Positions 51,829-61,652 of a stretch of DNA of 64,000 nucleotides are shown piece after piece. How positions within the stretch are numbered: position 1 is the first letter of the stretch; each line of letters begins with the position of its first letter. The position numbers and the translations under genes are program-made. Under the pieces are notes generated by a model that made no database searches, was not told the origin of the DNA, and was given only the letters and a program-made list of their open reading frames with translations. The stretch comes from Acanthochlamys bracteata. Its lineage: Eukaryota > Streptophyta > Magnoliopsida > Pandanales > Velloziaceae. Location of the stretch: positions 5,095,903-5,159,902 of the forward strand of contig CM034138.1 of assembly GCA_019914995.1 (NCBI GenBank), in the 5' to 3' direction.

Positions 51829-52533
51829 TGTAATACCCTAAGCTAATGGGCTAGTTGATCGTTGGGCCAAGCCCAAATCAAACCTTTCTTCCACATTGTA
51901 GATTTCTCCGTACTTCTATATATTATCTTACTTCATGTTATTTTATTTTTATAGTTTTTATATCTTCGTCCCGATAGCCTCATCTCTACCCTTCTCCGAT
52001 CGACGATTTGTCCCTCCGGCGTTGATTTTTCTTCTTTTTCTCCTTGGTGATAATCTCCTCACGTAGCTCTTGCTCTTTTTGCTTCAATTTCACTAGATTG
52101 AGCTGTTACGATGGTAGGGCAGAGAGGAGCGAGCTCCTACAAGAATGGGAGCATTCTGCTGTTGATAGAGAGCAAAAATCAGTCACGGAACAAGCATTGG
52201 CAGAACTTGCCGGAAGGCCTCGCTGGAGCCAGAGGTCAATGGACAAGTGTTAGGGATGCCTATCGTGTTTCACTGGAGATCTGGGAAGAAGTGGCACCAA
52301 GCTTGGACAGTTGGGTCAAAGCTAGCAGCTGGGTGCAACTCAGGACAGCCAAAATACCTCGGATGTGTCCTGGGCGCCATTTAATCTGCACCCGGGTGTA
52401 GATCAGTGGCATCTATATGCCATGTAGGAGTTTAGCTCCAATAGGGAGTCTTTTTGTGTAGTTTAATTAGAATTAAAGTTCAGTAGAGAAGAGTTTATTT
52501 TTTATTAGAATTTTAATTAATGAGTATCTTTTA
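51829..52533 (+). repeat. Possible LTR of an unknown retrotransposon, left part
   Basis: The stretch starts TGTAATACCCTAAG and has a TATA-like run near 51,918. It contains a more G+C-rich transcribed-looking part with a 97-codon open frame (52,111-52,401) of no recognised family. It then ends abruptly at the Harbinger element. Beyond that element, at 61,350-61,490, the text continues with pyrimidine-rich LTR-like sequence and a PBS-like 'ttgtatcacgagc'. The simplest reading is one LTR split by the Harbinger insertion. No second LTR copy is in the window, so this is a guess. Confidence 0.3.
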
Positions 52534-52779
52534 CGCTGTGTTTGGATTTGGAGTGAAAGAGAGTGATTGGGAGTAAGTGAACGAATTACTCCTCGTTTTG
52601 GCAATGAATTTATAAGATTAATAGGGAGTAAAATTTCTCCCCATTAATCTCCATTCGGGTGTAATCGGTTACACCTCAATGTGGGGTGTAATCAGGTGAA
52701 GAGAATTTTGGATGACCGTGAAATTCTTATACTATCCATATTATTTGATGAGATTTACGCACGAGTTAGGTTTTAATTT

Positions 52780-52881
52780 TAGTCGATCTCAGCTGCAGCA
52801 GCTCGATAATTGCTTTCGCTCAACTGGATTTCGCTCGTCGCGCTCTCCTCCGATCTCGCCATCTCGCCGCCACCGACAGAG
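52780..52881 (+). other. Probable 5' non-coding exon of the Harbinger transposase transcript
   Basis: A G+C-rich stretch ('ctcagctgcagcagctcg', 'cgctctcctccgatctcgcc') ends at a good donor, gtacgt, at 52,882. The next likely acceptor before the transposase start is 'ttttttgcag' at 55,829, giving an intron of about 2.9 kb. The start of the exon is not defined. Confidence 0.35.
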
Positions 52882-58548: not shown

Positions 58549-59245
58549 CTGTTTTTTTTTCTATACTTGGATTGAAGCATGTCTGCCTACTAGTTTATTC
58601 TGGATTGGAGCTTGACTGCTTACTAATTTTTCTTTTCTATGTTTGGATTGGAGCTTACTTGTCTGCCTACTGATTTATTTTCTCCCTTCTCTTTTTTTCT
58701 ATACTTGAATTGGAGCATGTCTGTCCACTGATTTATTCTGGATTGGAGCTTGCTTGCATACTGATTTTTTTCTATGCTTAGTTGGAGCTTGCTTATCTAC
58801 CTACTGATTTATTTTCTCCCTTATGTTTTTATTTTCTATACTTGGATTGGAGCATGTCTATCTACCGATTTATTCTGGATTGGAGCTTGCTTGCATACTT
58901 TTTTTTTTCTATGCTTAGTTGGAGCTTGCTTGTCTGCATACAGATTTATTTTCTCCCTTATGTTTTTTTCTCTATACTTGGATTGAAGCATGTCTATCCA
59001 CTGATTTATTCTAGATTGGAGCTTGCTTGCATACTATTTTTTTGCTATGCTTAGTTAGAGCTTGCTTGTCTGCCTAGTGATTTATTTTCTCTCTTTTGTT
59101 TTTTTTGTATACTTAGATTGGAGCATGTCTTTCTACTGATTTATTCTGGATTGGAGCTTGCTTGCATACTGTTTTTTTCTATGCTTAGTTGGAGCTTGCT
59201 TATTGCCTACTGCTTTATTTTCTTCTTTCTATTTTATTTGGATAC
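58549..59245 (+). repeat. 137-bp tandem repeat array in the Harbinger element
   Basis: About five copies have a period of 135-138 bases. The phrase 'tatacttggattgRagcatgtct' starts at about 58,562, 58,700, 58,837, 58,973 and 59,108. Each unit also contains 'gattggagcttgcttgcatact', 'ctatgcttagttggagcttgctt' and 'gatttattttctccc'. The unit itself is built from related sub-repeats ('gattggagc..tg'). It starts 28 bases after the donor ending the Myb-like exon, so it lies in an intron or 3' region. The open frames across it are only consequences of the repeat. Confidence 0.85.
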
Positions 59246-61346
59246 TTTTTGTGGTTCTGGATTATTCCATGCCTTGATGCATTTTTGTTTAGGATCGTTC
59301 TGTCTAATGCTTTCTGCTATATTTTTTGCTTTCTTTTGCAGAATAGACGGCCAACATTGTGGATAGATTTTTTTGTTTTTTTGCAGACTGGGTAGCCAAC
59401 ATTGTTTTGTGTTATTTTTTGCTGATCGGGCAGTTATGATGTTAGAGTACAGTTATGATGTACTCTATTTATGTATTTAACATTATGAGAATGTAGTTGC
59501 TATATTAGTGTAATGAATATTTTGCTGATATATGTTATGTGAATAACTGCTTTGGACATGATTACAGGCAGGTGTAATATTGTTCTGGTTATGCTTCAAA
59601 TTATGTGATTGTAAGACCAAATTTACATATACAGGTATGGTTATTAGCCATCATTATTGGAAAGTTGCTTGATTTTGTTTCTTTATTGTAGCTTCTTGGA
59701 ACAGATAAGCTAAATGCTTATCTAAATAAATATAGGCTAGAGCTTGATCCTTAACTTGAAGCTCTTGTTGAAAGGTGAAATACTACAATAACCTCTTTTG
59801 TCTTTTTCTTTTCATTGTGCGATTGAATTTCGTTCAAATCTTCAAATGTATCGGTACAGTGGCTTTGCTTACTCTTATCTCAATATATCAATGTTCTTTC
59901 ATTTATTTATGGGTTTGTTTCTTATACTGTTGTTTGTATTTGCTGCAGACAGAGCAGGAAACCATGGTCAAAGTTTATCAATGCAGACAATAAACATCTT
60001 GTTTCTCCAAAGGTGGACTGTATGTTCTGCAGAGGTGGACTGTTTTTATAGCATTATTTAGGCTAGAAGATGGCATCAGATATATAGATGATGCATGTTC
60101 TTTTGGTTGTTTACTTTCTTTTCCTTGTTTGCCCTTGAACTTCAGTAATTTTAAGGACTATATATTCTGTTTTAGGAGTGGATTTTAAGAAGCGTTTGCT
60201 TTGAGAAGCTGTCATACATAGTATAAAGCATGCTGGAGGTTTTGATTTTTAATCAATAAATTTTTTCAGAATTGGATGCATATTTGTTTCTTAATATGCT
60301 CTTTTTCATTGTCTATCACCTTGCAGGCACATCCATATTTTCAGCAAGTGCTAGCTGTCAAGAATAGCAGGATGCACACTTAACAACGAAGCCTCTCATA
60401 GGTTTGAAAATATTTGTTTATGTCAGTCAGAATCAAGTGTGCTCGTTTGCACTCGTATGCTTCAGATTGTAGAAATTGTTAACATATTGTACTCAGTAAC
60501 ATGTACTTATTTGATTATTGTCTATGAGTGATTCTGTTCAACACAGTTTTTCGCTTATGGAATTGACGTGTATTCTAGTAAACACTTGAGAAAGTAGTAG
60601 TGCCTAGTTAAAAGAAACAAAGGTCATTGCCGTTTGATTTTTCATTTATGGAACTTGTATAATATCTAGACCACTTTTTGTTTAAGTAATCAACATTTTG
60701 TTTCTGTCAAAAATGCCAAAACAGTCTACAAGATTTATCTCATAAAGGCGCTCAAACACAATTTTTTCTTGTATCATTATCAATTACTTGTTCAACAACA
60801 TATCTATGAGTTCCCCAAATCCCTGCAGGCCAAAACAACACCAATTCCTAATCAAAATCGAACGTGGGTCTCTAAACCTTGTTCTCATCGTATGCAATGC
60901 TTCCCTTGCAGCAACAACAACAAAATAAAGTTCTTGCTACTCCAAAAAAAAAAAGGTCAACAACAAAATAAAGATTATAACTTTAAACAGAAAACTTGGT
61001 TTCATTAATTTGCTTTACCTTCAGAGTTAGTGGAGATTGCTGGTGAGAAGGAAAAAAAGAACAGAAAGAAGAGCAGAGAAGAAAGGGATGACTGATGTGG
61101 AAGAAATCATCATTAGAGAAACAATAGAGAGTTTTGAAAATTGGTTGTTTAACAAAAAAACACAAAAGGATATTTCAGTCTTTTTATAAAAATTATTTTT
61201 ATTTATTCTTCAGTTACCAAACAAGAATAATATATATTCTTTATTAATCTTATTAATATATCTAAACAAGACTTTCGTCTCTACTTGAATAATTTACTCT
61301 TATTTAATCTTACTCTTATTTATTACTCCTATATCCAAACACAGTG
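59246..61346 (+). other. 3' non-coding part of the Harbinger element
   Basis: No gene was recognised. Several cag acceptor-like sites with short open text occur (59,342, 59,384, 59,949), so untranslated exons are possible. The last 130 bases hold the subterminal 'ttactcttattta' repeats and the right terminal repeat. Confidence 0.5.
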
Positions 61347-61652
61347 TTATGTTATAAATAAAGAAAGCATGACCTAGATAAAGACATGCATGATTGGATT
61401 TCTTATATTATTTCTTCACTTCTTCTACTCCTTCCTTTGTTCCTATTGATCCTTTGTTCGTCTTCTCTCTTCTCTCTTTGTTCACTACGATTGTATCACG
61501 AGCTTTATTCACCGCCGAATAATAATCTTAACTTGAGCGTTTGTTAGTTCGCCGGCGTTTCTTCACTAGTGACGTGCTAAAGTCTTTTCCCTCTACATGT
61601 TTTATATTTTCTCTCACACAATTCTAATGATCATCGGCTCTGGTGTAAAATG
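61347..61652 (+). repeat. Possible LTR, right part, and PBS-like site (split by Harbinger)
   Basis: After the TTA duplication the text runs 'tgttataaataaagaaagcatgacc', then a pyrimidine-rich stretch, then 'ttgtatcacgagc' at 61,491-61,503. That resembles 'ttggtatcagagc' of copia primer-binding sites with two indels. It may continue the LTR-like sequence at 51,829-52,533. It is cut off by the 5' LTR of copia-3 at 61,653. Confidence 0.3.

What the first reader, a model, noticed from the sequence alone, without database searches (positions are those of the whole stretch)
52531..61349. Complete but disabled 8.8-kb PIF/Harbinger element with both partner genes
Both ends share about 20 of 24 bases (C(G/A)CTGTGTTTGGAT..GGAGT), TTA is duplicated on both sides, and the interior carries a DDE transposase and a Myb/SANT-like gene in the same orientation. 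All three catalytic codons survive even though both genes are broken. The size is well above the usual 4-6 kb. It may be a useful reference for the family in this species and may have intact siblings.
Basis: partly seen in the sequence, partly recalled or inferred. Interest (0 to 1): 0.75.

Follow-up and report, generated by a model that had tools for sequence, protein, structure and literature searches.

The report
Large broken transposon carrying kinase-gene fragment
This is a dead copy of a plant jumping gene of the PIF/Harbinger type, unusually long because its lineage picked up and spread pieces of other DNA, including the tail of the plant's own casein kinase 2 gene.

Summary
An 8,813-bp PIF/Harbinger element lies at 52,534-61,346 between TTA duplications, inside an LTR (probably a solo LTR). 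The joined flanks match 25 other genomic places in one piece; the four aligned have a single TTA exactly at the junction. The DDE transposase and Myb/SANT gene are as described. The three catalytic codons survive, but four of five coding exons are broken.

About 59,665-60,680 is a captured genomic piece of the host casein kinase II alpha gene, with exons, introns, stop codon and 3' UTR, in the transposase's sense, 81-88% identical to the host gene on contig C2. Seven other elements carry pieces of it. The 53,118-55,451 stretch fills an inferred leader intron with conserved splice sites; its source is unidentified.

Related subfamilies keep the transposase-Myb cassette but mostly have different 5' and 3' fillers; two siblings measured are also about 8.9 kb. 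Shorter 3.7-5.4-kb derivatives keep the ends and some cargo but have lost the transposase. None of 24 copies examined is intact.

Gene capture by PIF elements is known in grapevine, so this is a new member of a known kind.

The parts
52099..52103 (.). TGAGC, left half of the probable 5-bp target duplication of the host LTR
   Evidence: LTR homology starts at TGTTACG (52,104); right partner CGAGC, 4 of 5 equal
52104..52533 (+). Left part of the interrupted LTR
   Evidence: aligns to uninterrupted LTR copies L033-L036 (L036 only near the junction)
52531..52533 (.). TTA target-site duplication, left
52534..52547 (+). Left terminal inverted repeat CGCTGTGTTTGGAT
52534..52881 (+). Left end, subterminal DNA and inferred untranslated leader exon ending ACAGAG|GT
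   Evidence: GT at 52,882 conserved in 15 of 15 copies with a readable left part; transcription start not tested
52882..55829 (+). Inferred 2.9-kb leader intron of the transposase gene
   Evidence: donor 15 of 15; acceptor AG in 14 of 20, lost in 4, not alignable in 2
53118..55451 (+). Subfamily-A 5' filler; shared with two places on contig C9 where no PIF core was seen (main pieces 75-83%); source unidentified
55441..58600 (+). Conserved core cassette shared by the subfamilies compared
55849..56361 (+). Transposase exon 1 (disrupted)
56435..56664 (+). Transposase exon 2, open; catalytic D at 56,453 and D at 56,603
56729..57181 (+). Transposase exon 3 (disrupted); catalytic E at 56,886
57415..57782 (+). 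Myb/SANT-like gene exon 1 (disrupted)
57886..58519 (+). Myb/SANT-like gene exon 2 (disrupted)
58533..59223 (+). 137-bp minisatellite, 5.1 copies, after the Myb gene
59665..60680 (+). Captured casein kinase II alpha gene fragment with introns; three exon pieces, one further exon deleted, native stop codon and 3' UTR
60681..61000 (+). Weaker continuation of the captured DNA, in short pieces collinear with C2:11550182-11552507
61047..61346 (+). Right subterminal region shared with many family members
61333..61346 (-). Right terminal inverted repeat CACTGTGTTTGGAT
61347..61349 (.). TTA target-site duplication, right
61350..61498 (+). Right part of the interrupted LTR
61499..61503 (.). CGAGC, right half of the probable 5-bp duplication of the host LTR

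Best explanation
It is a full-length, now inactive two-gene PIF/Harbinger DNA transposon. Shown: its ends, its TTA duplication and the empty site; a DDE transposase followed by a Myb/SANT gene, both with broken exons; and a captured fragment of the host casein kinase II alpha gene between the Myb gene and the right end. Inferred: it moved by cut-and-paste, the transposase cutting at the inverted repeats with the Myb protein as helper, and inserted at a TTA inside an LTR (probably a solo LTR; the order of events is not known). An ancestor of this subfamily took up genomic DNA in two non-coding spots, the leader intron (53,118-55,451) and the region behind the Myb gene (59,665 on), where cargo does not interrupt the proteins. 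The cargo then spread with the element. Internal deletions of this subfamily gave shorter elements without the transposase that keep the ends and part of the cargo.
For: Ends and TTA. Empty site: 25 of 25 non-self matches span the junction, 4 aligned with a single TTA. Pfam domains and catalytic residues. Transposase-then-Myb order also in 7 of 7 gene models that fuse the two domains among the 120 listed. Kinase fragment: phmmer E 1.9e-26 to casein kinase II alpha; exon-intron alignment to C2; three host-type loci and several element copies. The DNA search finds it in 8 element places including the window, plus pieces at C2 and C1 and one short match at C9; the seven others also match the window's 5' filler and end regions. 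Deletion derivatives L029 and L030 keep both ends and both flanking parts. Leader splice sites conserved around mostly non-homologous fillers.
Against: The 5' filler's source is not identified, and C9 could be recipient rather than donor. The leader intron is inferred from conserved sites, and 4 of 20 copies have lost the acceptor AG; there are no transcripts. Activity was not tested. The solo-LTR reading rests on 4 of 5 matching bases and on lack of internal similarity to four LTR loci; two of those four (L034, L036) do match AT-rich pieces at 48-50.6 kb left of the LTR, taken as unrelated repeats.
Confidence: 0.9

Rival explanations
1. A plain PIF element enlarged by later nested insertions of other transposons, not by gene capture.
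For: The 5' filler is shared with two C9 places, and window plus L029 carry about 560 bp (54,273-54,833) that L012 lacks, which could be an insertion.
Against: The 3' filler is intron-containing kinase gene DNA shared by eight copies on several contigs. No TIR-like motif with up to 2 mismatches was found in the stretches scanned, L044-L048; L049 and L050 were not scanned for it.
Confidence: 0.15
2. The core cassette was exchanged between subfamilies by recombination, so window fillers and core have different histories.
For: Core introns are about as similar as exons between subfamilies, intergenic DNA somewhat less, while most filler DNA does not align. L018 (5' like B, 3' partly like C) and L021 (5' B, 3' partly like D) look mixed.
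Against: For the window the core tree and the fillers agree (both group with L012), so no recent exchange is needed.
Confidence: 0.35
3. The kinase stretch is a separate host pseudogene that happens to lie beside a smaller element, and the true right end is before 59,665.
For: The kinase reading frame is broken and it has its own gene structure.
Against: The empty site places both ends at 52,534 and 61,346, and other elements on other contigs carry the same fragment at the same relative place.
Confidence: 0.02

Closest known systems
Pifvine-3 and other grapevine PIF families (PMC2528002, passages and sections 9 and 10 with Table 5 read)
   Same: PIF elements with transposase plus second ORF, 3-bp TAA/TTA duplications and long extra regions that match host genome exons and introns (transduplication), shared by several copies.
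   Different: Pifvine-3 cargo is described at the 5' side (up to 3.5 kb) and complete elements are 5-7.2 kb. Here the identified gene cargo is at the 3' side, the gene is casein kinase II alpha, and the element is 8.8 kb.
PePIF1 of Phalaenopsis (PMC6327408, passages read, including part of the abstract)
   Same: Two genes, three-exon transposase and two-exon Myb gene, TTA duplication.
   Different: 5,053 bp, 19-bp GGG-starting repeat; no captured gene was seen in the passages read. Its Table 2 lists one rice element, OsPIF1, of 7,365 bp.
PIF/Harbinger group as surveyed in PMC4482050 (passages read)
   Same: TWA duplication, DDE transposase, Myb/SANT ORF.
   Different: Average consensus length of candidate autonomous elements about 4,124 bp, and terminal repeats usually begin with A or G; this copy's repeats begin with C, while right ends of some siblings begin GGG.
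Pack-TYPE elements, including those of the PIF superfamily (PMC8903248, passages read)
   Same: Captured gene DNA between transposon ends. The transposase-less derivatives L029 and L032 that keep kinase exon pieces would fit this definition.
   Different: The window copy still holds transposase sequence, so under that paper's rule it counts as autonomous or autonomous-derived, not Pack-TYPE.

Membership tests
PIF/Harbinger | 3-bp TWA target-site duplication | tested here: met
   Empty site; 8 of 10 copies with both ends in hand
PIF/Harbinger | Short terminal inverted repeats | tested here: met
   13 of 14 bases; end regions shared by relatives
PIF/Harbinger | DDE_Tnp_4 transposase with catalytic D, D, E | tested here: met
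   many relatives annotated HARBI1 or ALP1-like
PIF/Harbinger | Second gene with Myb/SANT domain | tested here: met
   PF12776, E 2.6e-10
PIF/Harbinger | PIF rather than Pong lineage by transposase phylogeny | not tested
   No tree with reference Pong and PIF sequences was built
PIF/Harbinger | Transposition activity | not testable with these tools
   4 of 5 coding exons disrupted in this copy
Transduplication (host gene capture) | Fragment of a named host gene, with source gene elsewhere in the genome, between the element's ends | tested here: met
   casein kinase II alpha
Transduplication (host gene capture) | Cargo shared by several insertions | tested here: met
   8 element places including the window
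Pack-TYPE element | No transposase match | tested here: not met
   Window copy has transposase sequence; derivatives L029-L032 do not match the coding block

The most novel reading that the evidence does not exclude
In this plant the PIF family works as a modular gene-capturing vehicle that stays two-gene and mobile. A fixed transposase-Myb cassette is repeatedly re-flanked by foreign genomic DNA in two protein-neutral docking spots, a leader intron with conserved splice sites and the region behind the Myb gene. Each subfamily carries its own pair of fillers, with occasional exchange between subfamilies.
Probability: 0.35. Interest if true: 0.55.

Novelty: new member of a known kind. Interest (0 to 1): 0.36.

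Why it matters
It gives a clean reference copy of a large PIF/Harbinger family: exact ends, empty site, gene models and deletion derivatives. It also adds a case, with the gene named, of host-gene capture by a PIF element that still holds both of its own genes. If the modular pattern holds, it would suggest where an autonomous transposon can carry cargo without losing its own genes, and that can be tested across subfamilies.

Tried and rejected
Rejected: chance inverted repeats (empty site); kinase stretch outside the element; recent exchange of the window's core with another subfamily (core tree and fillers agree).

Led nowhere: Pfam on all six frames of the 5' filler and three forward frames of the 3' part found no family above cut-off, nor did the six frames of the L009 3' filler. 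Pfam therefore does not see the kinase pieces, which were recognised by eye and confirmed by sequence search. No solved-structure match at E 0.001 for the transposase. Source of the C9-like 5' filler not found. Subfamily C's 3' filler shares short, partly reordered pieces with C4:3408033-3408994, gene not identified. The window has no open frame of 200 or more codons, and the species was not identified. No paper held all four terms casein kinase II, Harbinger, transposon and captured; that is the only search behind any statement that this cargo is not in print.

Rows dropped: L015 and L022 were left out of the identity table; L022 was left out of the core tree and the acceptor alignment. Fifteen copies had a left part that could be placed. 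One search scored 40 of 91 candidates; of its 40 non-self rows, the 20 nearest siblings plus three younger ones were fetched. The regular expression for the second D was too strict (13 of 120) and was replaced by the alignment. One search aligned the wrong strand of L033 and was replaced; one search failed on a wrong option and was replaced. The exon test uses exons from individual copies as queries, so open or broken is relative to those.

Full report
What was checked. The window is contig C13:5,095,903-5,159,902 of an unnamed 195.5-Mb plant assembly in 557 contigs. The claimed ends are present: CGCTGTGTTTGGAT at 52,534 and its inverse CACTGTGTTTGGAT ending at 61,346, 13 of 14 bases, 17 of 24 ungapped. 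The exact 12-mer occurs nowhere else in the 64 kb. TTA flanks both ends.

Empty site. Joining the flanks and searching the genome gave 27 matches. Two are the window's own halves; the other 25 all span the junction. Four were aligned: each runs through the junction without a gap and has one TTA. Several matches lie in pairs 5.1-5.3 kb apart, as the two LTRs of one retrotransposon would. The interrupted LTR runs from 52,104 (TG) to 61,498 (CA). It is flanked by TGAGC and CGAGC, and the DNA just outside it does not match the insides of the four LTR loci examined, so it is probably a solo LTR; two of the four do match AT-rich pieces further left, at 48-50.6 kb.

Genes. The transposase has three coding exons and the Myb/SANT gene two, on the same strand, transposase first. 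Pfam supports both, and the seven plant gene models among the 120 listed that fuse the two domains have the same order. The catalytic codons D 56,453, D 56,603 and E 56,886 are intact; the aligned columns carry D, D and E in 117, 118 and 116 of 120 relatives. Exon 2 of the transposase is open; the other four exons are disrupted.

Siblings. The transposase core matches 41 places including itself, with 40 of 91 candidates scored. Of the 20 nearest siblings, none has all five exons open; the best have three. A younger compact subfamily (three copies, 96-98% alike) is closer to intact, but each of the three has a defect. L012 is the closest near-full-length relative, about 8.2 kb, with its right end eroded. 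L011 and L016, two copies of one insertion, measure about 8.9 kb (from coordinates), so the size is not unusual here. It is large against the published average of 4,124 bp (PMC4482050, passages read) and the grapevine range of 5-7.2 kb (PMC2528002, Table 5).

Why it is long. A DNA search with 59,600-61,000 found eight element places including the window, plus collinear pieces at C2:11,548,540-11,552,507 and C1:12,229,412-12,230,820 and one short match at C9. The seven other element places also match the window's 5' filler and both end regions. Translation shows the casein kinase II alpha exons LGTDKLNAYLNKYRLELDP(stop)LEALVER, QSRKPWSKFINADNKHLVSPK and AHPYFQQVLAVKNSRMHT(stop). Phmmer with these pieces against solved structures gives E 1.9e-26 to casein kinase II alpha (best chain 2pvh_A, the maize enzyme by recall). 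The alignment to C2 runs through exons and introns, its main pieces 81-88% identical, with one exon and its surroundings missing from the element. The genome holds kinase exons at three host-type loci (C2, and C1 twice), broken pieces in elements, and two weak further matches. One 3.3-kb element on C20 appears still to have the exon that the others lack, on a single 59% match. The captured piece keeps introns, so it came from genomic DNA, and it lies in the sense of the transposase.

The 5' filler. Between 53,118 and 55,451 the element matches two inverted places about 8 kb apart on C9, main pieces 75-83%. Their mutual similarity continues past the filler. No gene could be named there, so the source is open. 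The filler lies inside what looks like a leader intron: the donor GT at 52,882 is kept in 15 of 15 copies with a readable left part, and the acceptor AG before 55,830 in 14 of 20, lost in 4 and not alignable in 2. This is inference, without transcripts.

Subfamilies. Core identity and a core tree give subfamilies A (window, L012), B (L009, L014, L015, L020, L021), C (L010, L011, L013, L016, L017, and less firmly L023 and L025) and D (L019, L024, L026, L027); L018 and L028 stand apart. Between A, B, C and D the core is 81-90% alike. Its introns are about as similar to the window's as its exons are, and the intergenic stretch is 79-94%. Left and right fillers, by contrast, are alike mostly within a subfamily. 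Across subfamilies what aligns best is the left-end region, about 35-44% of the short B or C left fillers at 66-75%, and short pieces near 59.2-59.5 kb. L018 and L021 have fillers partly from different groups. So replacement of filler DNA seems to have accompanied the origin of subfamilies. Subfamily C's filler also shares pieces with C4, not identified.

Derivatives. L029 (5.4 kb) and L030 (3.7 kb) keep both ends and both flanking parts at about 92-94% but lack the coding block. L031 and L032 keep the 5' part but have right ends of the GGGTCTGTTTGGAT type; L031 has no kinase piece. The 5' filler is 95-97% identical between the window and these four copies over its matched parts. These look like internal-deletion products that spread cargo without the transposase.

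Verdict. A well-supported, inactive PIF/Harbinger element with captured casein kinase DNA. Capture by PIF elements was reported in grapevine (PMC2528002, section 10), so the kind is known; the member and its cargo are new in the sources searched (one search is the only literature search for this cargo). The mechanism of movement is taken from established knowledge of the superfamily; activity was not tested.

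Noticed in passing
L041, L042, L043 (C1:10482300, C12:6424600, C3:6178300): A compact related subfamily with 96-98% pairwise identity and nearly open genes, presumably more recently active; L042 has a non-acidic residue at the second catalytic position.
   Followed up: partly
L011 and L016 (C6:4370229-4380228 and 4384101-4394100): Two copies with the same flanking bases 14 kb apart: a segmental duplication carrying the element, not two insertions.
   Followed up: partly
L018 and L021: Elements whose 5' and 3' fillers belong partly to different subfamilies, suggesting exchange between elements.
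   Followed up: partly
L013:7322-7696 against C4:3408033-3408994: Subfamily C's 3' filler shares short, partly reordered pieces with C4 that are separated there by gaps; perhaps exons of another captured gene.
   Followed up: partly
window 48,000-52,000: Very AT-rich stretch (23% GC) full of short tandem repeats directly left of the LTR.
   Followed up: no
window 61,653-64,000: Highly repeated DNA (40 of 1,527 candidates scored, up to 92% identity to other places) right of the LTR; a different repeat family.
   Followed up: no
window 58,533-59,223: 137-bp minisatellite behind the Myb gene; deletion junctions of L029 and L032 fall in it.
   Followed up: partly
C20:1668691-1668792: A 3.3-kb element that seems to retain the kinase exon missing from the other element copies (59% over 34 residues).
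   Followed up: no
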